Shown here piece after piece: positions 19,825-53,422 of a DNA stretch of 64,000 nt. Position 1 is the first letter of the stretch, and every line of letters begins with the position of its first letter. The stretch lies in the NCBI GenBank assembly GCA_013314755.1, contig JABUFA010000002.1:124001-188000 (forward strand), read 5' to 3'. A program made the translations under genes and the position numbers. The notes under the pieces were generated by a model. It did not search any database, was not told the origin of the DNA, and saw nothing but the letters and a program-made list of their open reading frames with translations. This DNA is from Chthonomonadia bacterium. Lineage in GTDB: Bacteria > Armatimonadota > HRBIN16.

Positions 19825-19849
19825 GAGGGCACGCCCGGCGCGTGCCCTC
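19825..19849. terminator. GC-rich hairpin between convergent genes
   Basis: GAGGGCACGC-CCGGC-GCGTGCCCTC is a perfect 10-bp stem with a 5-nt loop between the dehydrogenase stop and the stop of the minus-strand gene. It could terminate both transcripts, although no long U tract follows. Confidence 0.55.
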
Positions 19850-20826
19850 TATTCCAACTCCTGTTCCAGCGCGCCGTCCAGCACTACCGTCACGCCCATC
19901 TCTCGCGCTGACTGATGGGCATTGGGGTCGATACCCTCGCCAGCAACTACGGGTACAGCAAGCAGTCCCGCCTTACTCAACGTCTGCGCGCGGCGCGCCG
20001 CCCGCTGAACATCCTTCATCCCAACGCCCCATGACGCTTCTACCACAAGATAGACCTCCTGTCCATCGTCGCGGCGTCGCCCACGCACGATAACGTCCGC
20101 TTGCAGTAAGTCAGCCACCTCATGTGGCGTCAGTGTGCCCTGCTCCTCCAGGTCATCCAGCATCGCGCTGATTTCTTCAGGTGGCAGTGCCCGAATCCGC
20201 TTCAGAAGCTTGCTGAAATAGGCATGAGCGCGGGTAAAGTACTTCTGCTCGTGGTAGAACTTCTTCAGCTGGGCAATGTCATCCGCCATCCTTTGCTGGC
20301 TCATCGCCAGTTTCTGTACATTGGCGGTCAGTTCGTCCACCCGTTGGGTTAAATCACTCACCAGCTGCGTTAATTCGTCTACCCGAGCGGTCAACTGGTC
20401 TACCCGCAGGGTCAGTTCGTCCATCCGTCGGGTTAAATCAATTACCAGCTGCGTTAATTCGTCTACCCGAGCGGTCAACTGGTCTACCCGCAGGGTCAGC
20501 TGCTCTAGCTTCTGGGCGAGCTGATCTACTCGCTCCGTGAGCTGGTTAAGTCGCAGAGCGAGATCGTCTATCCGAAGGGTCAGTTGTTCTACGCGCTGGG
20601 TCAGCTGTGAGAGATGAACGGCCTGCTGGCGCACCTCCTGGGTGAGTTCGCGCACCAGTTCAGGCAAGGTGAGCAGCTCCTCGCTGAGCAACATGCGCCG
20701 AAGCTCGACACGCCACTCGGGATGCTGTTGCAGCAGGTCCAGTAGGTCACGAAAATCTCGCAGTGTGAAAGCCATCTCCAGTACCTCATCAACACTGTGC
20801 GTCTCTATTTTACCACTTTTGTCCAC
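19849..20826 (-). CDS. Heptad-repeat coiled-coil protein with PD-(D/E)XK-like C-terminus
   Basis: The 325-residue frame starts at a GTG (20826) with a weak ribosome site; the start is uncertain and a later ATG is possible. Residues about 60-185 are an almost pure heptad array (LTLRVDQLTARVDELTQLV and variants) predicted to form a long coiled coil. Residues about 190-230 link to a C-terminal domain with ADVIVRGRRRDDGQEVYLVVEAS followed by KDVQRAARRAQ. Its Asp and Glu plus downstream helix look like a degenerate PD-(D/E)XK nuclease core, as in DUF3782-like proteins. The coiled coil is encoded by near-identical 69-nt repeats 84 nt apart. Function is unknown; it has no cotranscribed partner. Confidence 0.75.
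   Translation of the reverse strand: MDKSGKIETHSVDEVLEMAFTLRDFRDLLDLLQQHPEWRVELRRMLLSEELLTLPELVRELTQEVRQQAVHLSQLTQRVEQLTLRIDDLALRLNQLTERVDQLAQKLEQLTLRVDQLTARVDELTQLVIDLTRRMDELTLRVDQLTARVDELTQLVSDLTQRVDELTANVQKLAMSQQRMADDIAQLKKFYHEQKYFTRAHAYFSKLLKRIRALPPEEISAMLDDLEEQGTLTPHEVADLLQADVIVRGRRRDDGQEVYLVVEASWGVGMKDVQRAARRAQTLSKAGLLAVPVVAGEGIDPNAHQSAREMGVTVVLDGALEQELE
20346..20498 (-). repeat. Internal 84-nt-period repeat in the coiled-coil gene
   Basis: A block of about 69 nt at 20346-20414 recurs at 20430-20498 with one or two differences. The 84-nt shift equals 28 residues, exactly four heptads, so copy-number change would keep both frame and coiled-coil register. Confidence 0.85.
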
Positions 20827-22221: not shown

Positions 22222-23307
22222 GTGCAGGAACTGACCAGTGTGGAACGCATCACGAATATCCTGAAACGCCAGCCTGTAGACCGCATCGGAGTGTTCGAGC
22301 ACTTCTGGGGCGACACCTATCGGAGCTGGCTGGAAGGCGGCTACATTCGCGAGGGCGAGAACCTCGCCGACCATTTTGGCTATGACCTGGAGCTGTGCTG
22401 GCCTTTTAACATGGTGGCGGACCTGGACTACGTGCCCGAGGTGGTGGAAGAGACGGAAGAAACCATCCTGGTGCGCGATGGCAATGGAGCACTCCTGCGA
22501 CGCCACAAATTGCATGACTCCACCCCCGAACACGTGGACTTTCTGGTGAAAGACCGCCGCGCCTGGCTGGAGCATATCAAACCCAAACTCACTCCCGACC
22601 GTCGGCGCATTAACTTCGAGGCATATCGCAACACTCGCCGCTATGCACGGGAAAAACAGCGGTTCTTCTGCTGGTCGGGCGTGAACGTGTTCGAACTGAT
22701 GCATCCCGTGTGCGGGCACGAGTATATGCTGATGGGCATGATCGACGACCCCGACTGGGTACGCGATATGGTGAACACCTACGCCGAGCTGACCATTAAC
22801 CTCATGGAGATACTCTTCGCCGAGGAGGGCCTGCCCGACGGCATCTGGTTCTACGAGGACATGGGCTTCAAGGGGCGTCCGTTCATGTCGCCCGCGATGT
22901 ACAAAGAGATTGTCCAGCCGGGACACATTCGCACCATTCAGTACGCCAAAAGCCTTGGATTGCCGGTGATTATGCACTCGTGCGGATATGTGGAGCCGCT
23001 GGTTCCGGGCATGATTGAGGCGGGCATCGACTGTTTGCAGGTGATCGAGGTCAAGGCGGGCATGGACCTGGTGCGCCTGTATCGTAACTTTGGCGACCGG
23101 CTATCATTCATGGGGGGCATTGACGTGCGCGTGCTTTACTCCAACGACCGGCGCCGGATTGACGAGGAGCTGGAGTCCAAAATCCCGATAGTCAAGGGGA
23201 ACTACGGCTACGTCCTTCACAGCGACCACTCCATCCCCAACACGGTGCACTACGAGACCTACCGCTACTTTGTGCAGCGCGGCCTGGAGCTGGGAAGGTA
23301 TGGGTAG
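22222..23307 (+). CDS. Uroporphyrinogen-decarboxylase (URO-D) superfamily protein
   Basis: The protein has 361 residues from GTG 22222, with AGGAGGAG upstream. It has the URO-D/MtaA barrel pattern: start ELTSVERITNILKRQPVDRIGVFEHFWG, SPAMYKEIVQPGHIRTIQYAKSLG, and the His-Ser-Cys-Gly motif LPVIMHSCGYVEPLVPGMIEAG. The His and Cys there suit zinc/thiolate methyl transfer rather than heme synthesis. Such proteins are frequent in sugar-rich gene sets of this kind of bacterium, with unknown substrates. True HemE motifs for uroporphyrinogen binding (the N-terminal RQAGR) are absent, so a heme role is unlikely. Confidence 0.85.
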   Translation: MQELTSVERITNILKRQPVDRIGVFEHFWGDTYRSWLEGGYIREGENLADHFGYDLELCWPFNMVADLDYVPEVVEETEETILVRDGNGALLRRHKLHDSTPEHVDFLVKDRRAWLEHIKPKLTPDRRRINFEAYRNTRRYAREKQRFFCWSGVNVFELMHPVCGHEYMLMGMIDDPDWVRDMVNTYAELTINLMEILFAEEGLPDGIWFYEDMGFKGRPFMSPAMYKEIVQPGHIRTIQYAKSLGLPVIMHSCGYVEPLVPGMIEAGIDCLQVIEVKAGMDLVRLYRNFGDRLSFMGGIDVRVLYSNDRRRIDEELESKIPIVKGNYGYVLHSDHSIPNTVHYETYRYFVQRGLELGRYG

Positions 23308-23388: not shown

Positions 23389-23417
23389 TTGACACTTTAC
23401 AGACCCCATGCTATAAT
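23389..23417 (+). promoter_or_regulatory. Perfect-consensus sigma-70 promoter of the helicase gene
   Basis: TTGACA (23389-23394), exactly 17 nt, then TATAAT (23412-23417), about 50 nt upstream of the helicase ATG. Both hexamers match the consensus at all six positions, the only such promoter with ideal spacing in the window. Confidence 0.85.
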
Positions 23418-23467
23418 GGCGGTGAAATTGCCACAACCATCAGTATGCTCGGAGAGGTGTTGCAGAC

Positions 23468-26400
23468 ATGCAAGATATTGTCCTGCAAAGATATGAGAAC
23501 GCCCGCAAGTCGCTTGTTGACCTGAGTTTGCGTAATCGCTTCTTAAACTATCGTATAAACAACAAAAGAGGGCTTCGATTTGTATCGCCATCGGCTAGAG
23601 AAATCTACAATACTCTGGTTATCCAACACGCGAAGGTCAGCCTCGCACCAGAACCCGGGGATGGCGAAGAAGCGTTAGAGGTAGAACACAGGGACGATAG
23701 ATCTCACGTAGTGTATGTTTCCGAACGAAAGGAAACTATAGATGAAAAGATTCTCGAGCTATGGCGCGAGTCGCGCTCGATTCAAGATGAGCGAGGGCTA
23801 AACCTTCTGTTTGTCGCTATAGGATTCCTGAAGTGGTACGAGGCTGACAGTACCGAAAAAGCACTGTACGCACCCTTGATCCTCGTTCCCGTGTTGATTG
23901 AGAGAGCAAAAGACCGCAAGTTCTACCTGATGTATGAAGATACAGAGGTAGTCACTAACCTCTCGCTGGGCGAAAAGATGAAAGAGTTTGGCATTTCACT
24001 ACCAGACACAGGCGACGACGAGGATTTGGATGTAGAAGAGTACTTCAAGCAGCTGGAACAGCGTCGGCAGGAACGGTGGGAAGTTTGCAGCGAGATGGTC
24101 GTTCTTAACCTGTTTGATTACACAAAGTATGTGATGTATAAAGATTTAGACCCTGACAATTGGCAAATTGGTCAACATGCTGTCCTTAACTCTCTACTCT
24201 CTGGAGAGTGCCTCTTCGAATCTGCCGATAGCATCCCAGACGACAATATTGACAAGGTGCGTCCGGTAGAAAACGCATTAGAGGTCTACGATGCTGATTC
24301 TTCACAGGTATCAGCCATCCTGCGTGCAAAAAATGCACCGTTAACAGTTATCCAAGGTCCTCCAGGCACTGGCAAGTCGCAGACAATAACGAACATTATC
24401 GCCGAAGCCGTATACGAGGGCAAAAAGGTACTGTTCGTTTCGGAAAAGCGTGCAGCGCTGGAGGTGGTATGGAGGCGTTTGAACGAGGCTGATTTATCGC
24501 CGATCTGCCTCGAACTGCACAGTAGCAAGTCACACAAGGCAGGGTTTTATGCGGAACTAAAGAGCACCTGGCAGGAGGGTCCCAAAAAGCGCGCGATACA
24601 AGAAAGCATTCTTAGAGAGATCGAACAGAAGCGTGAGTATCTCAACAGCTATTGTAATGCACTGCACACGCCGGTAGGTAAATACGGAGTAACTCCCTTT
24701 CAATGCATCGCGGAACTGTGCAGAATCGGTGCAGAGCGGGGAAAGTTTCGCCCCGAAGATTTCCAGGTAATGAAGGAATGGACAAAGGAGGACTTTGAGA
24801 AAGCATCCAGCCTCGTTGAGAAGCTGCAGTTACATGTTGCGCGATATGGTCTGCCATCTCGGAATCCCTTTTGGGGCAGTCAGGTTCAGAATGTTACTTA
24901 CGAACGCTGGCACACGGTTCGAGAGGCTGTGGCATCTGCGCTGCGGGCTGCGAACCATGCTAAACAGGCTTTTGAGGGGCTTCCGGAAAGTTTGGGCAAC
25001 GATCTGTTGCAAGCCGTGCGCTCTAATATTACGGTGTGGAGACACGAGATTCAGCAGATAAGGGAAGCATTTTTTACTTACCACACTCGCTGGTACCGTA
25101 GTTTCATATCTCGCTACCGCAGGTGCGAAAAGCTGCTACGAGACCTCATAGGCAAAAAACTGTATGAACAGATTCGCGAGCCCGCGTTTAAGAAAGACAT
25201 TTTAGATACACTAAACACCATACAGGCGGTCGTGGAGGCAGATAAAGAGCTAGAGCATCTGCTGGTGAATGTCTTGGAGGCGCAAGAACTATGGAAAAAT
25301 TGGCGAAACCAACCTTTACAAGATCAGATAGCACAGCTTGAACAATGGAATAGTATGGAGAGCGACAAACCACTACAGGATCTGGCGCGCTTCAATCGGC
25401 TGCGGCAAGAAGCAAAAAATCTGGGTATCGCCGACTTTGCAGAATACGCAGCCAAATGGGATGAGGCAGACAAGGATTTGTTACAATACTTTCAGCAGGT
25501 ATGGTACGAGAGCATATTGCAGGAAGCTATACACAACGAGCCTCTCCTGATGGATTTTGACCCGTTAGAGCACGAGCGGATCATAAAACAATTTCAAGAA
25601 CTCGATCAAACACTGCTTCGAATCAACAGACTGCGAGTGGCTCTAAGACATGCAGAGAACCTGCCCATGATGCAAACGTTTGGGAATATCAGTAAACTCC
25701 GTCATGAATTCGCCAAAAAACAGAGACACAAACCAATTCGTCGCATCATGCAAGAAGCGGGAGATGCCGTGCTGGCTATCAAACCTGTTTTTCTGATGTC
25801 ACCTCTCTCTGTCGCCGTTTACCTGCCTCCCAATTCAGTAACTTTCGACATAGTCATCTTTGATGAAGCGAGTCAGGTCAAGCCAGCGGACGCTTTTGGA
25901 GCAATATTGCGCGCCAAACAGGTAGTTATCGTTGGCGACGATAAACAACTTCCCCCCACTACCTTCTTTGAGAGAATGACCACAGATGAAGATTTCTCCG
26001 ATGAAGAGGAGGAAACCGATGTGGTTTCCGACATAGAAAGTATTCTCGATCTCGCGTACTCGGTTGTTCCCAAGCCCCATCAACTGAGGTGGCACTACCG
26101 CAGTAAGCATCATTCACTCATAGAGTGTTCGAATCGTCTGTACTACAACGATAGTCTTGTCATCCCACCGCATCCAGACCAGAAACCTCAGGATGTCGGC
26201 GTGGTATTTCATTACCTACCCGATGGCATATACGACCGAGGCAGAACCAGAACGAACCAACGAGAGGCTGAAGCTGTTGTAGATGCCATCATTCAGCACA
26301 TTGAAAATCACCCTGATCTATCGCTGGGGGTAGCAGCATTCAGCATGGCACAACAGAGAGCCATTGAAGATATGCTGGAACAGAGAAGACGGGATGCCCT

Positions 26401-27778
26401 GATAGACGCGCAGCTAGCTAATTTTGATAAAATCCACGCAAACGAGCCTTTGTTCATCAAGAATCTGGAAACGGTTCAGGGCGATGAGCGCGACGTTATC
26501 TTTATCAGTATTGGTTACGGCAAGGACAAGGACGGTCATGTTTCCATGAATTTCGGTCCATTGAACAAGGAGGGCGGAGAGCGACGGCTCAACGTCCTGA
26601 TCTCACGCGCGAGACACCGCTGTGAGGTTTTCAGCAGTATCAGGCATACCGATATACGAACTGACGCCAATAGTCCGAAGGGAGTTATTCACCTTAAGAA
26701 CTACCTTAAGTTCGCAGAGACTGGAGAGATAGAAATACCCCCTGCTGTCGAGAAAGATCCCATGTCGCCGTTCGAGGAGGAGGTGATCAAGGTTCTGCAG
26801 TCTTGGAATTACGAGGTGCATCCACAGGTAGGATGTGCAGGGTTTTACATAGATATCGGCGTCGTTAATCCTCAAAAACCCGGAGAGTACATTCTTGGTA
26901 TAGAATGCGACGGATCTCAATACCATTCTTCACGATCTGCCCGAGACCGCGACCGATTGAGGCAGCAGATACTGGAACAACGAGGCTGGCGCATCTACCG
27001 AATATGGAGTACTAGCTGGTACAGGCAGAAACAGGATGAGATGCGCCGCCTCTGGCAGGCACTGCAAGAGGCTCAAAATAAACCAGTCAACGGTGGCCCT
27101 CCTGAAGCCACCTGCGAGTCCTCCACTCAAAATATCGACCACACTGACGCTGAAGAGCCTGAATCAGCACGAGAAGACCTTACCGGTGGAAGCCAAACAA
27201 ATACGGCTGTGCCGCCTCATGAGATACTACCGCGTTACAATTACGCGCAAATATCACAAAAACCTAAACTGGCGCAGTGGTTGCAAGATGGTTATAGTAG
27301 CGCGATGTTGTCAACCGTTGTGGTTGAGATAGCCAAGGTCGAAGCACCTGTACACATCGAGGAGGTTATTACAAGGATACGTTCCGCCGCAGGGTTCAAA
27401 CGGACAGGCGCGCGAATACGCGAGAGCATACTGGACGCGGTGAAGTATGCAGAACGGGCAAAAAAGATTATGGTCGATGGCAATTTCATCTGGACAGTTC
27501 CAAAACAAAAACCTGTTCCACGCAATCGCTCCAATGTACCGGATGCTTCGCGCAAAGCAGAATACATCCATCCTGAAGAGATACGAGAAGCTGCTTTGCA
27601 AGTCGTGAGAACTGCGTTTGGCATCGATGAGGCTGAATTGAGAGACGAGCTGTTTAGATTCTTCGGCTTCAAGCAAGTGAACGACGAGATGAGAAAACGG
27701 AGCCAAGAGGCTATTGATGCATTGTGCCAGCAGAAACGGCTGTCGCGAGATCAGAATGGCACGCTCAAAATACTCTGA
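23468..27778 (+). CDS. DUF4011-SF1 helicase-PD-(D/E)XK nuclease-DUF3320 protein (putative defence protein)
   Basis: The protein has 1436 residues; GGAGAGGTG precedes the ATG. In order: N-terminal DUF4011-like region (SLVDLSLRNRFLNYR at about 15); superfamily-1 helicase with Walker A GPPGTGKSQTITN (about 296); a long coiled/helical insertion; Walker B IFDEASQVKPADAFGA (about 797) with VIVGDDKQLPPT; ETVQGDERDVIFISIGYG (about 1000) and NVLISRARH. A Vsr/DUF559-like PD-(D/E)XK nuclease follows (about 1095-1180; FYIDIGVVNP, GIECDGSQYHSS, RGWRIYRIWSTSW), then a DUF3320 domain (about 1290-1340). Proteins of this architecture are recurrent in defence islands. Base composition is visibly more AT-rich and codon use differs from its neighbours, suggesting transfer. 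It is a stand-alone gene whose last bases overlap the convergent trpC end. Confidence 0.88.
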   Translation: MQDIVLQRYENARKSLVDLSLRNRFLNYRINNKRGLRFVSPSAREIYNTLVIQHAKVSLAPEPGDGEEALEVEHRDDRSHVVYVSERKETIDEKILELWRESRSIQDERGLNLLFVAIGFLKWYEADSTEKALYAPLILVPVLIERAKDRKFYLMYEDTEVVTNLSLGEKMKEFGISLPDTGDDEDLDVEEYFKQLEQRRQERWEVCSEMVVLNLFDYTKYVMYKDLDPDNWQIGQHAVLNSLLSGECLFESADSIPDDNIDKVRPVENALEVYDADSSQVSAILRAKNAPLTVIQGPPGTGKSQTITNIIAEAVYEGKKVLFVSEKRAALEVVWRRLNEADLSPICLELHSSKSHKAGFYAELKSTWQEGPKKRAIQESILREIEQKREYLNSYCNALHTPVGKYGVTPFQCIAELCRIGAERGKFRPEDFQVMKEWTKEDFEKASSLVEKLQLHVARYGLPSRNPFWGSQVQNVTYERWHTVREAVASALRAANHAKQAFEGLPESLGNDLLQAVRSNITVWRHEIQQIREAFFTYHTRWYRSFISRYRRCEKLLRDLIGKKLYEQIREPAFKKDILDTLNTIQAVVEADKELEHLLVNVLEAQELWKNWRNQPLQDQIAQLEQWNSMESDKPLQDLARFNRLRQEAKNLGIADFAEYAAKWDEADKDLLQYFQQVWYESILQEAIHNEPLLMDFDPLEHERIIKQFQELDQTLLRINRLRVALRHAENLPMMQTFGNISKLRHEFAKKQRHKPIRRIMQEAGDAVLAIKPVFLMSPLSVAVYLPPNSVTFDIVIFDEASQVKPADAFGAILRAKQVVIVGDDKQLPPTTFFERMTTDEDFSDEEEETDVVSDIESILDLAYSVVPKPHQLRWHYRSKHHSLIECSNRLYYNDSLVIPPHPDQKPQDVGVVFHYLPDGIYDRGRTRTNQREAEAVVDAIIQHIENHPDLSLGVAAFSMAQQRAIEDMLEQRRRDALIDAQLANFDKIHANEPLFIKNLETVQGDERDVIFISIGYGKDKDGHVSMNFGPLNKEGGERRLNVLISRARHRCEVFSSIRHTDIRTDANSPKGVIHLKNYLKFAETGEIEIPPAVEKDPMSPFEEEVIKVLQSWNYEVHPQVGCAGFYIDIGVVNPQKPGEYILGIECDGSQYHSSRSARDRDRLRQQILEQRGWRIYRIWSTSWYRQKQDEMRRLWQALQEAQNKPVNGGPPEATCESSTQNIDHTDAEEPESAREDLTGGSQTNTAVPPHEILPRYNYAQISQKPKLAQWLQDGYSSAMLSTVVVEIAKVEAPVHIEEVITRIRSAAGFKRTGARIRESILDAVKYAERAKKIMVDGNFIWTVPKQKPVPRNRSNVPDASRKAEYIHPEEIREAALQVVRTAFGIDEAELRDELFRFFGFKQVNDEMRKRSQEAIDALCQQKRLSRDQNGTLKIL

Positions 27779-28556
27779 CCCCCGCCATTTCCCTCAGCCG
27801 GGCGCCGACGTCCTCTGCTCGCATCAGCGATTCGCCCACTAAGACAGCATGGGCGCCGGCGCGGGCGACACGGCGAACATCCTCGGCGTTTTCAATCCCG
27901 CTCTCGCTGACGCACACGCAGTCGGACGGCACCAGCGGCGCCAGCCGCTCGGTCACCTCTAAGGTGGTGTGGAAGGTGCTGAGGTCGCGGTTGTTGATGC
28001 CGATGACGGTTGCGCCCGCCCGAAGCGCACGCCGGAGATCCTCTTCCGTGTGCACCTCCACCAGCGCGTCCATGTCCAGCTCGCGCGTGTAAGCCAGCAG
28101 GTCTGCCAGCGGTTCGTCCTCCAGCGCGGCCACAATCAGCAACACCGCATCCGCGCCCGCCACGCGCGCCTCCAGCACCTGATACCGGCTGATGAGAAAG
28201 TCCTTGCGCAGTACGGGCACAGGCACGCGCTGGCGAATCGCCCGCAGGTAGTCCAGATGCCCATGAAAGAAGCGTTGGTCCGTCAGCACGCTAATCGCGC
28301 TGGCGCCGTTCCGGGCGTACACCTCGGCGATATGCAGGGGGTCAAATTGCTCGCGGATAACGCCTTTGGAGGGCGACGCCTTCTTCACCTCGGCAATCAC
28401 CGCCACACAGCCGTCCTCGCGCTTCAGAGCCTGCGCGAACGGGCGTACCGCGGGCGCGGTGGGCAGCTGAGATTCCAACTCAGCAAACGGCGTTCGCGCC
28501 TGCGCCTCGGCAACCTCCCTCCGCTTGTGCTCCAGGATTTGGGCGAGTATGCTCAC
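27765..28556 (-). CDS. trpC: Indole-3-glycerol phosphate synthase
   Basis: The protein has 263 residues. It closes the ring of CdRP to indole-3-glycerol phosphate, the fourth step of tryptophan synthesis. The beta/alpha barrel motifs are all visible: VIAEVKKASPSKG (catalytic Glu/Lys), SVLTDQRFFHG, VLRKDFL, ALVEVHTEEDL, GINNRDLSTF and VSESGI. The start overlaps the trpD stop as ATGA. The last codons (RVF, stop at 27765) overlap the 3' end of the convergent helicase gene by 14 nt. Confidence 0.96.
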   Translation of the reverse strand: MSILAQILEHKRREVAEAQARTPFAELESQLPTAPAVRPFAQALKREDGCVAVIAEVKKASPSKGVIREQFDPLHIAEVYARNGASAISVLTDQRFFHGHLDYLRAIRQRVPVPVLRKDFLISRYQVLEARVAGADAVLLIVAALEDEPLADLLAYTRELDMDALVEVHTEEDLRRALRAGATVIGINNRDLSTFHTTLEVTERLAPLVPSDCVCVSESGIENAEDVRRVARAGAHAVLVGESLMRAEDVGARLREMAGVRVF

Positions 28557-29587
28557 GACGATGCCCCCGCCTGCTGGGTGAACCGCACGTACTCCTCCAG
28601 CTTGCGCAGTGCCTTGCCGGAGTCCAGCATCTCGCCCGCCAGATGGATACCATCCTCCAAACTCTGCGCCCTGCCTCCCACCACCAGCGCAGCCCCCGCG
28701 TTCAGCAGGAGCAGGTCACGGTATGCGCCCTGTGCCCCGCTGAAGAGGTCGCGAATCAGCTGGGCGCACTCCTCCGGCTTGTCTGGGGCAGTGACCTCTT
28801 CGGGGCGGGCACGGCGGAACCCAAACTGTTCGGGCGTGACGCGCTCTTCGGTGGTTTTTCCATCATGCACGTGCACCACCACCGTCTCGCCGAGTGTGGA
28901 TAGCTCGTTCAGACCGGGTTCTCCGTGCACCACCATCGCGCGCTCCGTACCCAGCTCGCGCAGAACGTCCGCGATAAGGTGTACCAGACCACCATCGTAC
29001 ACGCCCAGCAGTTGTCTCGGAGCGCCGGCAGGATTGGTGAGTGGTCCCAGCAAGTTGAACACCGTACGCACGCCCAGCTCCTGGCGAACCGGTGCGGCGT
29101 ACTTCATGGCGGGATGGTGCGCCCGGGCAAACAGGAAGCCGATGCCTATCTCGTCAATCGCCTGCGCCAGCTGTTCCGGGCTCAGGTCCAGGCGACAGCC
29201 CAGCGCCTCCAGCACATCGGCACTGCCGCACTTGCTGGTCACCGCCCGGTTGCCGTGTTTGGCAACCGGCACGCCTGCCGCCGCCGCGACAAACGCTGCT
29301 GCCGTCGAGACGTTAAAGGTCTTCACGCGGTCTGCCCCTGTGCCGCAGGTATCTATCAGTTCGGGCTGGCGCTGAGACTTCACCGGCACCGCGTGCCGCC
29401 GCATGGTTTCGGCACAGCCGGCAATCTCCTCGGCGGTTTCGCCCTTCATGCGCAGGGCTATCAGCCAGCCGGCGGTCTGGGCAGGAGTGGCGTTGCCGCT
29501 CATGGTGGCTTCCATCAGCGACGCCGCCTCTTCGCGGGTCAGGTTCTGCCTTTCAACCAGTTTGGCAATCGCTTGCTGAACGGTCAT
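28553..29587 (-). CDS. trpD: Anthranilate phosphoribosyltransferase
   Basis: The protein has 344 residues from ATG 29587 behind AGGAG; the frame is open further upstream but that part overlaps the M24 gene. It joins PRPP to anthranilate. Family motifs: LIDTCGTGADRVKTFNVSTAAA (PRPP binding), KHGNRAVTSKCGSADVLEALG, and NLLGPLTNPAG. It lies 5 nt after the M24 peptidase gene and is coupled to trpC by ATGA. Confidence 0.96.
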   Translation of the reverse strand: MTVQQAIAKLVERQNLTREEAASLMEATMSGNATPAQTAGWLIALRMKGETAEEIAGCAETMRRHAVPVKSQRQPELIDTCGTGADRVKTFNVSTAAAFVAAAAGVPVAKHGNRAVTSKCGSADVLEALGCRLDLSPEQLAQAIDEIGIGFLFARAHHPAMKYAAPVRQELGVRTVFNLLGPLTNPAGAPRQLLGVYDGGLVHLIADVLRELGTERAMVVHGEPGLNELSTLGETVVVHVHDGKTTEERVTPEQFGFRRARPEEVTAPDKPEECAQLIRDLFSGAQGAYRDLLLLNAGAALVVGGRAQSLEDGIHLAGEMLDSGKALRKLEEYVRFTQQAGASS

Positions 29588-29592
29588 ATCTC

Positions 29593-30708
29593 CTATCCTA
29601 TCTCCCGAATGTGTGGTGGAGGTTCCGCGTTGAGCGATTGGCATCCGTCGGCGGTAACCACCACCAGATTCTCGATGCGCACACCGAAGCGTCCGGGCAA
29701 GTAGATACCGGGCTCGATGCTGAAGCACATACCCTCCTCCAGTATCTGCTTGTTGCCTTTTACGATATAGGGAGGCTCATGCACCGACAGTCCGATACCG
29801 TGCCCGGTGCGGTGCACGAAAAACTCGCCGTAGCCCGCCTTCTCAATCACCGAACGCGCCGCCGCGTCCACCGACTCTGCGGTGACACCGGGTTTGACCG
29901 CCGCGCGCGCCGCGTAGTGGGCGTCATACACTATCTTATAGACCTTCTGCACTTCGGGCGTGGCTTCGCCGATGCACACCGTGCGCGTCATGTCCGAGTT
30001 ATATCCGTTCAGGCGCGCCCCATAATCAATCACCACGACGTCGCCCGGGTGCATGACGGTATTGGTGGTACGATAATGTGGCTGTGCGCTGTGTTTGCCC
30101 GCGGCGACAATCGGCAGTCCGAAAGCCATCTCCGCTCCCTGCGCTTCAATCTCCGCCTGAATGGCGCAGGCGACCTCGCGCTCGGTGTTGCCTGCGGCAC
30201 ACATCGCCAGCCCGGCACCGAAAGCGTTATCGGCGTAGCGCGACGCCTGGGCGATATGCCAGAGCTCATCCTCGTCTTTGCGGATGCGCGCAGCTGCCCA
30301 GATTTCGGTGCCCGGACGATACAGGGCTGTAGGAAGTATCTGCTGAAGTTTCAGCAGAAAAAGCGCAGGCAGTTCTTCGTCAATGGCGATGATGGCTGTG
30401 GCAAGGTCCAGCTGCTGCGCTACCTCGCGCAACACGGGTTCTACCCCTTCGTGGTCCTCCCACACCCGGATATCACCAACACCAAACGCCTCCTGCCTCG
30501 CACTCTCCGCGCTGAGCGCAGGCACAATCAGCACCGGCTCACCCTGAGCAGGCACAAAAACCGCCATGAACCGCTCGTGCGCCGGCTCCACAAACCCCGT
30601 GAGATACTGCATGTTCACCGACGGCGCAGCCACAAAACAGTCCACACCCTCCCGAAGCATCGCCTCCTGCATCACTGCCCGGCGACGATGAAGAATGTCC
30701 GTGTTCAT
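29593..30708 (-). CDS. M24-family Xaa-Pro aminopeptidase/dipeptidase
   Basis: The protein has 371 residues. The N-terminal creatinase-like domain (about 1-130) is followed by a pita-bread catalytic domain with all five metal ligands in place: VIDYGARLNGYNSDMTRT (two Asp), GTGHGIGLSVHEPP (His), SIEPGIYLPG (Glu) and GVRIENLVVV (Glu). It cleaves peptide bonds involving proline at or near the N-terminus. It is unusual in sitting between trpG and trpD, with 44 nt and 5 nt gaps, so it is probably cotranscribed with the tryptophan genes. No direct metabolic link is evident. Confidence 0.92.
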   Translation of the reverse strand: MNTDILHRRRAVMQEAMLREGVDCFVAAPSVNMQYLTGFVEPAHERFMAVFVPAQGEPVLIVPALSAESARQEAFGVGDIRVWEDHEGVEPVLREVAQQLDLATAIIAIDEELPALFLLKLQQILPTALYRPGTEIWAAARIRKDEDELWHIAQASRYADNAFGAGLAMCAAGNTEREVACAIQAEIEAQGAEMAFGLPIVAAGKHSAQPHYRTTNTVMHPGDVVVIDYGARLNGYNSDMTRTVCIGEATPEVQKVYKIVYDAHYAARAAVKPGVTAESVDAAARSVIEKAGYGEFFVHRTGHGIGLSVHEPPYIVKGNKQILEEGMCFSIEPGIYLPGRFGVRIENLVVVTADGCQSLNAEPPPHIREIG

Positions 30709-30752
30709 CGCAGTCCCCCCTTTTTCTCACCGCAGAAACATCATACAATGGT

Positions 30753-31319
30753 TCAGCGCATGTTCAGAAAGTTACGCAGGAGGTCCTTACCCGCCTGAGT
30801 CAGGATAGATTCGGGATGGAATTGCACCCCTTCTATCGCGAACTCGCGGTGGCGCACCCCCATAATCTCTCCGTCATAGGTCTCTGCTGAAATCTCCAAA
30901 CAATCGGGCAGGCTCTCACGAGCAATGACCAAGGAGTGGTAGCGCGTGGCTTCAAACGGATTCGGCAGGGAACGAAACACGCCTCGTCCGTCGTGGTAGA
31001 TGGCGGAGGTTTTGCCGTGCATCAACTGCCGCGCCCTCACGATTTGCCCTCCGAACGCCGCGCCGATACACTGATGCCCCAGGCACACCCCCAGAATGGG
31101 CACTCTGCCCGCAAACCGCTGGATCAGGGGCACCGAGATGCCCGCCTCGTTCGGCGTGCAGGGACCGGGCGAGATGACGATGCGCTCGGGCTGCATCTCT
31201 TCAATCTTTTCCAGCGTAATCGCATCGTTACGATAGACGCACAGGTCGGCGCCCAGCTCGCCGAAATACTGCACGAGGTTATAGGTGAAACTGTCGTAGT
31301 TATCAATAATCAACAGCAT
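30753..31319 (-). CDS. trpG: Anthranilate synthase glutamine amidotransferase subunit
   Basis: The protein has 188 residues, a class-I glutamine amidotransferase that supplies ammonia to TrpE. It shows [29 protein letters not shown], the nucleophile elbow GVCLGHQ (Cys about 80) and the His-Glu pair in [10 protein letters not shown]. It starts 6 nt after trpE ends. In many bacteria this subunit also serves PabB for folate synthesis; no pabB is present in the window. Confidence 0.95.
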
Positions 31320-31325
31320 CTCTGC

Positions 31326-32807
31326 TCACTCCAGACCTGCCTCTGCCATCTCCACCGCACGCATCAGCGCACGCGCTTTGTTCAGACACTCCTGATGCTC
31401 GCGCTCGGGCACGGAATCCGCTACGATGCCCGCGCCTGCCTGAATGTAGGCTATACCGTTCTTCATCACGACGGTGCGGATAGCGATACAGGTATCCATA
31501 TCGCCGCTGAAGCTGAAGTAGCCCACCGCTCCAGCATAGATGCCCCGTCGCGTCGGCTCCAGCTCCTCGATAATCTCCATCGCGCGCACTTTGGGCGCAC
31601 CCGATACCGTGCCCGCCGGAAAACATGCCCGCAGGGCGTCAAAGGCGTCTTTATCGGGCGCAAGCCTCCCCTTCACATGAGAGACGATATGAATCACGTG
31701 CGAGTACTGTTCAATGGTCATCAAATCCTCGACGCGCACCGTGCCGTAGGCGCACACCCGCCCGAGGTCGTTGCGCCCCAGGTCCACCAGCATCACGTGC
31801 TCGGCACGCTCCTTCTCATCCGCCAGCAGCTCCTGCGCCAGTCGCCGGTCATCCTCTGGCGTCTTACCGCGGGGGCGCGTGCCCGCAATCGGGCGCGTGG
31901 TAGCAATCCGCTTCTCCACCGTAACCAGAATCTCCGGCGATGCTCCCGCCAGCACCACGTCGTCCAGCTCCAGATAGAACATGTACGGCGACGGATTGAG
32001 CGAACGCAGGGCGCGATACACGTCAAAGGGATGCGCCTGAACGGGAGCCTGCCACCTCTGCGAGATAACCATCTGCGTGCCGTCGCCAGCTGCGATGTAC
32101 TCTTTCGTGCGCGCCACCGCCTGCTGGTACTGCTCCGGGCTCTGGTTGGGAGTGAACACCACGGGCGTCTGCCTGGGTGGACTTTTTGGTGCAGCAGGAA
32201 GCGGAGCTCGCAATCGCTCGATAAGCTGGTCTACCCGGGCACATGCCTCGTCATACGCTTTGTCTACGTCACCCTGCACATGGGCGTTGCTCAGCGCGAT
32301 AATGCGGTGACGCACATGGTCGAATATCAGCAGCGAATCCGCCAGCAGGAAGCAGCTGTCATCCACCCCCAGGTCGTCCACCGTCTGTTCGGGCAGGCGT
32401 TCAAAGAAGCGCACCATGTCGTACGCAATGTAGCCTACCAGCCCGCCCACAAAGCGGGGCAGCTCCGCTGGCAGGGCGATACGATAGCCGCTGAGCAGGC
32501 TTTTGAGACGGTGCAGAGGGTCCTGTCCGCTCGGGATGGTTTCGGTGGTCTCCGTATCGTCGCGGATAAGGCGCACCTGTCTGCCCTTGCTTCGAAACAC
32601 CAGCGCAGGCTCCGTGCCCAAAAAGGAATAGCGGGCGATGCGCTCACCTCCGGCAACGCTTTCCAGAAGAAACGAGTATCTCCCTCGCGCGATTTTGCGG
32701 AACGCCGACACGGGTGTTTCCATGTCCGCCAGTATCTCGCGATAGACAGGTATCAGATTACTCTGCTGAGCCAGACGACGGAACTCCTCTCGCGAGGGAG
32801 AGAACAT
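31326..32807 (-). CDS. trpE: Anthranilate synthase component I
   Basis: The protein has 493 residues. It converts chorismate and ammonia to anthranilate. The N-terminal domain includes SRYSFLGTEP-like sequence (IARYSFLGTEPALVF), which contributes to tryptophan feedback binding. The chorismate-binding domain shows PSPYMFYLELDDVVLAGASPE, RPIAGTRPRGKTPEDD, DLGRNDLGRVCAYG, FPAGTVSGAPKVRAMEIIEELEP and QAGAGIVADSVPE. It is first in the unit trpE-trpG-M24-trpD-trpC. trpF, trpB and trpA are not in the window. Confidence 0.96.
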   Translation of the reverse strand: MFSPSREEFRRLAQQSNLIPVYREILADMETPVSAFRKIARGRYSFLLESVAGGERIARYSFLGTEPALVFRSKGRQVRLIRDDTETTETIPSGQDPLHRLKSLLSGYRIALPAELPRFVGGLVGYIAYDMVRFFERLPEQTVDDLGVDDSCFLLADSLLIFDHVRHRIIALSNAHVQGDVDKAYDEACARVDQLIERLRAPLPAAPKSPPRQTPVVFTPNQSPEQYQQAVARTKEYIAAGDGTQMVISQRWQAPVQAHPFDVYRALRSLNPSPYMFYLELDDVVLAGASPEILVTVEKRIATTRPIAGTRPRGKTPEDDRRLAQELLADEKERAEHVMLVDLGRNDLGRVCAYGTVRVEDLMTIEQYSHVIHIVSHVKGRLAPDKDAFDALRACFPAGTVSGAPKVRAMEIIEELEPTRRGIYAGAVGYFSFSGDMDTCIAIRTVVMKNGIAYIQAGAGIVADSVPEREHQECLNKARALMRAVEMAEAGLE

Positions 32808-52295: not shown

Positions 52296-52323
52296 TTGAC
52301 AATTTCGTATAGTATACTATAAT
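52296..52323 (+). promoter_or_regulatory. Near-perfect promoter with embedded palindrome upstream of the WYL regulator
   Basis: TTGACA (52296-52301), 16 nt, TATAAT (52318-52323). The 14-bp perfect palindrome TATAGTATACTATA (52308-52321) fills the spacer and covers the -10 box, as an autoregulatory operator would. The start codon is 80 nt downstream. Confidence 0.7.
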
Positions 52324-52402: not shown

Positions 52403-53422
52403 ATGCCCGAGGCTAACGTGTATGGTTTTCAGGCGAGGCGCCCGAAGACCGAGCGCCTGCTGGCACTCATGCAGGAGATTCGCAAACAGGAGGACCTCAG
52501 ACCCAAGCGTCTGGCGGAGAAGCTGGGAGTGTCTGAACGCACAGTGTATCGCTACCTGAGGATGCTAGAGGACAACGATTTGCTCGCAAAACGCTACAGC
52601 CGCCGACAGAGGCAGTACGTGCTGGAGCCGCAGACCTCTCTGGAACCCATCCGTTTCACGCCCCAGGAGGCACTGGCGCTGGAGATTGCGGCGTCCAACC
52701 CTGCTATTATGCAGGGTAGTATCTTCGCCCGCGACCTCCAAAACGCCATGCAGAAGATCCGCTCCATGCTGGATGCTGCCACCCAGCGGGAGGTGGACAG
52801 GCTCAAGCAGCACGTCAGCATCGACACCGATACCTACGCGAACTACTTTGCGTTCCAGACCATCATGCTCACCCTGCAGAACGCTTTCGCACTCAGGCGA
52901 AAGGTACGCATTCGCTACTGGGCTGCCTCCACTAACCAGGAAGAGGAGATTATCATCCATCCGCTCCACCTGACCTTCCGGGAGCATCACTGGTATCTGC
53001 TTGCCTTCTCGGAGCGACACGGCGAGGTGAGGCTGTTCCGAGTCTCGCGCATCCGCGAGGCAGAGATGCTCCCCCAGAAGTTCCGCAAACCCACCCGCTT
53101 TGACCCCGATACCTGGTTCGAGCGGTCGTGGGGTGTGTGGGGCAAGACCGATGAGGTCATCGTCAAGGTGAAGTTCTCGCCGCGCGTCGCCCACATCGTG
53201 AGGGACACCCACGGAAGGCGCTTCTACAAGATGGAGATGCAGCCCGATGGAAGCATGATCTGCATCGCCGAAACCTACGGCACGAAGGAGATTTCGTGGT
53301 GGATTCTCTCGTGGGGTGCTGACGCCGAGGTGCTGGAGCCAGAATACCTGCGGCAGGAGTTTGCCAAAATTACCAAAGCGATGGCTGACCTCTACGCCCC
53401 GGCAACATCCGAAGGGGTGTAG
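52403..53422 (+). CDS. HTH-WYL transcriptional regulator
   Basis: The protein has 339 residues; CGGAGGATTGCGAT precedes the ATG. The N-terminal winged helix (RLAEKLGVSERTVYRYLRML, about 38-57) binds DNA. The WYL domain (about 165-250; RIRYWAA, HPLHLTFREHHWYLLAFSE) and a WCX-like C-terminal domain sense a ligand, often nucleic acid or nucleotide in defence and DNA-damage regulators. It is monocistronic. The palindrome in its promoter suggests self-control. Neither flanking gene is an obvious target. Confidence 0.9.
   Translation: MPEANVYGFQARRPKTERLLALMQEIRKQEDLRPKRLAEKLGVSERTVYRYLRMLEDNDLLAKRYSRRQRQYVLEPQTSLEPIRFTPQEALALEIAASNPAIMQGSIFARDLQNAMQKIRSMLDAATQREVDRLKQHVSIDTDTYANYFAFQTIMLTLQNAFALRRKVRIRYWAASTNQEEEIIIHPLHLTFREHHWYLLAFSERHGEVRLFRVSRIREAEMLPQKFRKPTRFDPDTWFERSWGVWGKTDEVIVKVKFSPRVAHIVRDTHGRRFYKMEMQPDGSMICIAETYGTKEISWWILSWGADAEVLEPEYLRQEFAKITKAMADLYAPATSEGV

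What the first reader, a model, noticed from the sequence alone, without database searches (positions are those of the whole stretch)
23389..27778. Stand-alone AT-rich DUF4011-helicase-nuclease-DUF3320 gene with perfect promoter
A 1436-residue protein combines an SF1 helicase, a PD-(D/E)XK nuclease and DUF3320. It is AT-richer by eye than everything around it, has a perfect TTGACA-17-TATAAT promoter and overlaps the end of trpC by 14 nt. This looks like a recently acquired single-gene anti-phage system inserted into a housekeeping region. The architecture is known from defence islands (family knowledge); its action alone is undescribed as far as I know.
Basis: partly seen in the sequence, partly recalled or inferred. 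Interest (0 to 1): 0.8.

Follow-up and report, generated by a model that had tools for sequence, protein, structure and literature searches.

The report
Single-gene anti-phage helicase-nuclease beside trpC
This is a real one-gene helicase-nuclease of a family already listed as an anti-phage defence candidate; it was not dropped in recently, but sits at a spot next to the tryptophan gene trpC where several related species carry this gene or a different defence-like gene.

Summary
An intact 1436-aa ORF (23468-27778 +) has DUF4011, a UPF1-like SF1 helicase split by a ~330-aa insert, an REase_MTES_1575 nuclease and a C-terminus (DUF3320) predicted as two winged helices. It has a 12/12 sigma-70 promoter, overlaps convergent trpC by 14 nt, and has the lowest GC3 of 34 window ORFs (0.51; others 0.72, sd 0.06).

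The family is known: PADLOC PDC-S37 (1548 bits, 1550-aa model). It scores high but below cut-off against NCBIfam "anti-phage protein ProA" (1321 vs 1500) and Hhe (933 vs 2000). So single-gene action is already claimed for the kind. "Recently acquired" is not supported: in 4 of 8 congeneric species with a resolved trpC junction the gene lies at the same place and orientation, always AT-rich. Two others carry a DUF4268 (PDC-S11) gene there, one with a methyltransferase; one is empty, one rearranged. Gene and species trees conflict (p-AU 4e-5), so alleles were swapped or sorted at a persistent site. The left "uroD" flank is a species-specific rearrangement.

Best reading: a stand-alone defence enzyme at a small trpC-linked defence hotspot. 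No phenotype was tested.

The parts
23389..23417 (+). perfect sigma-70 promoter TTGACA-17-TATAAT
   Evidence: 12/12 match; near-consensus boxes (TTGAC[AG], 16-18 nt, TATAAT-like) also lie upstream of the G002, G006 and G009 alleles (read by eye)
23468..27778 (+). 1436-aa DUF4011-SF1 helicase-REase-DUF3320 protein, PDC-S37 family, ProA-like
23513..23980 (+). DUF4011 domain (aa 16-171)
   Evidence: Pfam 5e-35; AlphaFold model of aa 1-285, pLDDT 87, no confident PDB or viral fold match
24356..24379 (+). Walker A, GPPGTGKS (K303)
   Evidence: invariant in 18-sequence alignment A1; K in 77 of 78 homologs
24548..25534 (+). fast-evolving insert between helicase motifs Ia and II (about aa 361-689)
   Evidence: 24-35% identity between most genus alleles against 57-85% in the core; dN 0.70 against 0.28 for G006-G000
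25862..25873 (+). Walker B, DEAS (aa 799-802)
   Evidence: D799 and E800 in 82 of 82 homologs
26771..27064 (+). REase_MTES_1575 PD-(D/E)XK (Vsr-like) nuclease (aa 1102-1199), D1129 and E1146-C-D1148
   Evidence: Pfam 2e-39; D1129, E1146, C1147, D1148 invariant in 40-sequence alignment A3; nearest folds are the I-Bth0305I catalytic domain and NGO0050
27200..27775 (+). DUF3320 region, predicted tandem winged helices
   Evidence: Pfam 3e-12; two HHH-EE units, model residues 181-259 and 285-351; winged-helix hits to SelB, cullin WHB, E2F
27765..28556 (-). trpC (IGPS), convergent neighbour and conserved edge of the site; 14-nt overlap
   Evidence: Pfam IGPS 8e-97
22222..23307 (+). URO-D family gene forming the left flank; rearranged in this species, not ancestral to the site
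   Evidence: 92-94% orthologs lie elsewhere in relatives

Best explanation
A constitutively expressed, single-polypeptide anti-phage (anti-invader) enzyme of the PDC-S37/ProA-like family. Proposed action: the tandem winged helices, DUF4011 and the variable insert recognise a foreign or abnormal nucleic-acid state; the UPF1-like SF1 motor uses ATP to load on and move along the strand; the attached PD-(D/E)XK nuclease then cuts it. With no modification enzyme as a conserved partner, self/non-self discrimination would rest on DNA structure or replication state, as for other helicase-nuclease defences, not on a methylated site. The gene occupies a small, long-lived, variable defence site at the 3' end of trpC, where alleles and alternative defence genes turn over. 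Shown here: domain content, intact catalytic motifs, stand-alone organisation, promoter, the shared site and the tree conflict. Inferred: defence phenotype, substrate, order of events, sensing role of the insert.
For: Full-length PDC-S37 match, and strong ProA and Hhe matches. Helicase residues (K303, D799, E800, Q827, R878, R1040, R1047) essentially invariant in 78-83 comparable homologs. Nuclease D1129 and ECD invariant in 40. In aligned homolog pairs, catalytic parts show low nonsynonymous change (dN 0.11 G006-G009) while the insert (0.35) and wHTH region (0.39) change about three times faster, the pattern expected for a conserved engine with a changing recognition part. No conserved partner in 112 loci. 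Patchy: 59 of 291 phylum genomes, 427 plasmid records of which 24 cover at least 80%, a few viral contigs. Same trpC-convergent site in 4 species; DUF4268/PDC-S11, once with an N6/N4 methyltransferase, at that site in 2 others. A 46-aa methyltransferase C-terminus directly upstream of the gene in G009 is 98% identical to the methyltransferase at the same site in G001.
Against: No phenotype tested here. Of 109 neighbours of compact homologs elsewhere, few matched PADLOC models (mostly redundant GajA, 2 members), so defence-island association outside this genus is weak in that rough sample. DNA rather than RNA as substrate is unproven: UPF1-like helicases act on both, and related CoCoNuT CnuH systems are predicted to target RNA (PMC11090510). 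Below both NCBIfam equivalog cut-offs.
Confidence: 0.62

Rival explanations
1. Recent, one-off horizontal insertion of a defence gene into an otherwise stable housekeeping locus.
For: Low GC3; absent from 6 of 10 genomes of the genus; the most closely related species tested, G008, has trpC only 9 nt from the URO-D paralog.
Against: Homologs at the same position and orientation in G002, G006 and G009; the four genus proteins form one clade, 100/100; all four alleles are equally AT-rich.
Confidence: 0.12
2. RNA-directed defence: the UPF1-like motor and Vsr-like nuclease act on phage transcripts or structured RNA, as proposed for CoCoNuT type III-B CnuH.
For: UPF1-like helicase family (TIGR00376/IGHMBP2 and UPF1/SMUBP-2 matches); a Vsr-like effector fused to the helicase and a large helical insert after Walker A are described for CnuH (PMC11090510); the winged-helix region also resembles the RNA-binding SelB domains.
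Against: The nuclease's best structural relatives are DNA endonucleases (homing endonuclease I-Bth0305I); no McrB/McrC genes adjoin; SMUBP-2-like helicases also act on DNA (own knowledge).
Confidence: 0.25
3. A housekeeping DNA/RNA repair or surveillance helicase-nuclease rather than a defence protein.
For: Conserved catalytic core, no conserved defence partner.
Against: Patchy presence, plasmid carriage, replacement by other defence-like genes at the same site, apparently disrupted allele in G002, curated defence labels for close relatives.
Confidence: 0.1

Closest known systems
PADLOC PDC-S37 (PDLC05009), single-gene phage defence candidate
   Same: Full-length match, 1548 bits, 1550-position model; same size class and architecture.
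   Different: Nothing essential; the genus proteins are somewhat shorter (1429-1455 aa) because the insert between Walker A and B is reduced.
NCBIfam NF058533, anti-phage protein ProA
   Same: DUF4011-SF1-REase-DUF3320 core, 1321 bits. A compact Chitinophaga homolog (1546 aa) passes the cut-off with 1638 bits from model position 356.
   Different: Below the 1500-bit equivalog cut-off. The model has about 355 extra N-terminal residues; one long member (L108) shows a transglutaminase-like match there. The publication behind the name was not found in the library.
Hhe (NF042953; PADLOC Hhe)
   Same: Shared helicase-REase core (933 bits; PADLOC 690 bits).
   Different: Far below the cut-off (2000). 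The MTES_1575-type giants described in PMC3710099 carry HEPN and transglutaminase domains; ours gives no Pfam match to either.
CoCoNuT type III-B CnuH (PMC11090510)
   Same: UPF1-like SF1 helicase with a large helical insert after Walker A and a fused Vsr-like nuclease.
   Different: CnuH works with McrB/McrC-type CoCoNuT partners; none lies next to this gene. No direct sequence comparison was made.
Mokosh (MkoA/MkoC)
   Same: Related helicase (109 and 93 bits).
   Different: Mokosh effectors are PLD-like (PMC10952713); here a PD-(D/E)XK nuclease and no PLD match.
Hachiman HamAB (PMC12278908)
   Same: Works-like analogy only: helicase senses DNA state, nuclease executes.
   Different: Two proteins and a different helicase and nuclease pairing; not treated as a relative.

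Membership tests
PADLOC PDC-S37 | Full-length match to the family profile | tested here: met
   1548 bits, E=0; best stretch aa 584-1429 on positions 727-1541 of 1550, three matched stretches
PADLOC PDC-S37 | Encoded alone, no conserved partner | tested here: met
   Largest recurring neighbour family in 6 of 112 loci within 3.5 kb
NCBIfam ProA (NF058533) | Score at or above the curated equivalog cut-off | tested here: not met
   1320.8 against 1500 bits
NCBIfam ProA (NF058533) | N-terminal ~355-residue extension of the full-length model | tested here: not met
   ORF begins with DUF4011 at aa 16; model positions 1-355 precede the core. Compact members without it can still pass the cut-off
Hhe (NF042953) | Score at or above the curated cut-off | tested here: not met
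   933 against 2000 bits
Hhe / MTES_1575-type giants | HEPN and transglutaminase-like domains in the same protein | tested here: not met
   No Pfam match to either up to E=0.1; protein 1436 aa, against Hhe profile lengths 1797 and 1911
UPF1-like SF1 helicase | Walker A/B and SF1 motifs | tested here: met
   K303, D799/E800, Q827, R878, R1040, R1047 conserved; matches SMUBP-2 and UPF1
REase_MTES_1575 / Vsr-like PD-(D/E)XK | Catalytic acidic residues in a PD-(D/E)XK fold | tested here: met
   D1129, E1146-C-D1148 invariant in A3; I-Bth0305I fold match, prob 1.00, TM 0.71-0.79 by target length
CoCoNuT type III-B | Operon with McrB/McrC-type genes | tested here: not met
   Flanks are alpha-fucosidase, URO-D family, trpC-trpD-peptidase M24-trpG-trpE
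Mokosh | PLD-like nuclease | tested here: not met
   No PLD match in Pfam
Any anti-phage system | Protection against phage | not testable with these tools
   Needs plaque assays

The most novel reading that the evidence does not exclude
The 3' end of trpC is a persistent mini defence hotspot, without detected mobile-element or tRNA signature, in this genus; single defence genes (PDC-S37, PDC-S11 with or without a methyltransferase) and divergent alleles of one helicase-nuclease replace each other there. The helicase-nuclease alleles differ mainly in the insert and winged helices, which would then be the invader-recognition parts.
Probability: 0.5. Interest if true: 0.5.

Novelty: new member of a known kind. 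Interest (0 to 1): 0.4.

Why it matters
It turns a 'recent insertion' story into a testable natural series: four alleles, two alternative defence-like cargoes and one empty site at the same trpC junction. The domain-wise rate contrast suggests where recognition lies in a widespread single-gene family whose mechanism I could not find described, and whose N-terminal DUF4011 domain had no confident match among solved structures searched here.

Tried and rejected
Rfam and tRNA scans found no RNA gene or tRNA integration site in the window. Paper searches for the source of the name ProA, for PDC-S37 and for a mechanism gave nothing direct. Fold searches with the DUF4011 model: nothing significant in PDB, one weak viral hit with E 3e-3 and TM 0.28. 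dN/dS could not be computed because synonymous sites are saturated in the gene, so allele age cannot be dated; trp genes have GC-biased third positions, so their lower pS is not a clean clock either. A blastn of the 161-nt region upstream of the gene against relatives' loci gave no match, so no insertion target sequence was defined. Considered and rejected: a toxin-antitoxin or multi-gene operon (no conserved partner; upstream gap 160 nt with its own promoter).
Full report
OBSERVATION. The ORF is at 23468..27778 (+), 1436 aa, ATG start. The cited start, 23389, is the -35 box. The promoter is TTGACA-17-TATAAT with a TG before the second hexamer. Two perfect TTGACA-N15..19-TATAAT sites occur in the window where shuffles give 0.02. 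The stop of the ORF overlaps the stop of convergent trpC by 14 nt, 27765-27778. GC is 0.488 and GC3 0.514; 33 other long ORFs in the window have GC3 0.720 +/- 0.057, and none is lower.

ANATOMY. Pfam gives DUF4011 (16-171), SF1 helicase AAA_11/AAA_12 (Walker A near 303, second part 791-1055), REase_MTES_1575 (1102-1199) and DUF3320 (1278-1319). Closest solved structures by sequence are SMUBP-2 and UPF1 helicases. Walker A and B are 500 residues apart; the insert between them is among the fastest-changing parts. Helicase residues are essentially invariant in 78-83 comparable homologs, and the nuclease residues D1129 and E1146-C-D1148 are invariant in 40. Two regions were modelled with AlphaFold2. 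Residues 1-285 gave pLDDT 87, with no significant PDB match and one weak viral match, so the DUF4011 fold may be undescribed. Residues 1085-1436 gave a Vsr-like nuclease followed by two winged helices, with best hits to the homing endonuclease I-Bth0305I catalytic domain and to SelB, cullin and E2F winged helices. The last point agrees with the 2013 description of DUF3320-overlapping wHTH domains (PMC3710099).

FAMILY. PADLOC: PDC-S37, 1548 bits. NCBIfam: ProA 1321 bits (cut-off 1500) and Hhe 933 bits (cut-off 2000), so by curated standards it is a relative of both and an equivalog of neither. Compact homologs of about 1450-1670 aa and long ones of about 1830-2300 aa, many with N-terminal extensions, coexist; one compact Chitinophaga homolog passes as ProA, and one long homolog shows a transglutaminase-like match in its extension. 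The family occurs in 59 of 291 genomes of the phylum, in 427 plasmid records, 24 with at least 80% coverage, in a few viral contigs and broadly across bacteria and archaea. No neighbour family recurs in more than 6 of 112 loci within 3.5 kb: it is truly a stand-alone gene. Few of 109 neighbours matched PADLOC models at 1e-15; ORF calling there was rough (longest-first).

THE SITE. Of 10 genomes of the genus, four have a full-length homolog: G000, G002, G006, G009. All four have it tail to tail with trpC, at distances from a 14-nt overlap (G000 and G002) to about 50 nt. Eight species have a resolved trpC junction. G001 carries an N6/N4 methyltransferase, two unknown genes and a DUF4268 gene (PDC-S11); G005 carries a DUF4268 gene (PDC-S11); G008 is empty, trpC 9 nt from a URO-D paralog; G004 has unrelated genes (tRNA nucleotidyltransferase-like). 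In G009 the sequence directly upstream of the gene, at a contig end, encodes a methyltransferase C-terminus 98% identical over 46 aa to that of G001, so cargo at the site has been exchanged next to a retained gene. All four alleles are AT-rich (GC3 0.49-0.54). The four proteins form one clade with full support, although only same-phylum homologs were in that tree. Within the clade G006 groups with G009, whereas the trp-block species tree groups G006 with G002 (100/100). Holding G002 and G006 together is rejected (p-AU 4e-5), and the other species-tree grouping is also disfavoured (p-AU 0.018). So alleles were replaced or sorted at a persistent site; a single recent insertion does not explain this. 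The G002 allele contains an in-frame TAG.

THE LEFT FLANK. The 361-aa URO-D family gene has 92-94% orthologs elsewhere in relatives, as does the alpha-fucosidase (92-95%); in G005 the two lie about 640 kb apart on a contig that does not carry trpC. In relatives the gene beyond the site is a different URO-D paralog of about 420-448 aa, whose ortholog in this genome is on contig C87 (83% identity). The left neighbour here is therefore a species-specific rearrangement, or less likely a misassembly of a draft genome.

SELECTION. For G006-G009, dN is 0.11 in the helicase core and 0.13 in the nuclease, against 0.35 in the insert and 0.39 in the winged-helix part; the G006-G000 comparison shows the same contrast. 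Synonymous sites are saturated, so only the contrast between regions is used. The catalytic machine is conserved while putative recognition parts change.

MECHANISM. My preferred model is a one-protein, ATP-driven helicase-nuclease defence that recognises a foreign or abnormal nucleic-acid state and cuts it. Analogy: in Hachiman the helicase senses DNA damage and releases a nuclease (PMC12278908, abstract). The RNA-targeting alternative has support from CoCoNuT type III-B, where a UPF1-like helicase with a large helical insert carries a fused Vsr-like nuclease (PMC11090510). DNA versus RNA, and direct clearance versus abortive infection, cannot be settled from sequence.

VERDICT. 'Recent acquisition' is not supported and 'undescribed' is outdated. 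What is new is the trpC-linked, recurrently re-occupied defence site and the domain-wise rate contrast.

Noticed in passing
window 52296-52323 +: A second perfect TTGACA-16-TATAAT promoter, about 80 nt upstream of an ORF (52403-53422 +, 339 aa) that reads like an HTH-WYL transcriptional regulator (ORF seen, no family search run).
   Followed up: partly
window 19849-20826 -: 325-aa ORF made of tandem coiled-coil-like repeats (QLTxRVDELTxxV...), with no Pfam match at 1e-8.
   Followed up: partly
L049:7683-11996 (G002): The G002 allele of the gene is split by an in-frame TAG into ORFs of 228 and 1196 aa; pseudogene or sequencing error.
   Followed up: partly
L048:3920-7297 (G001): N6/N4 DNA methyltransferase, two unknown proteins (311 and 180 aa) and a DUF4268 protein (PDC-S11) in a row between a URO-D paralog and trpC: looks like a restriction-type system with two unidentified members.
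   Followed up: partly
genome G000: The genome holds 18 matches to the URO-D family query, an unusually large paralog set.
   Followed up: no
window 28553-32807 -: trpE, trpG, an M24-family peptidase, trpD and trpC run in one direction in this order; the M24 peptidase inside the trp block is conserved in the relatives examined.
   Followed up: no
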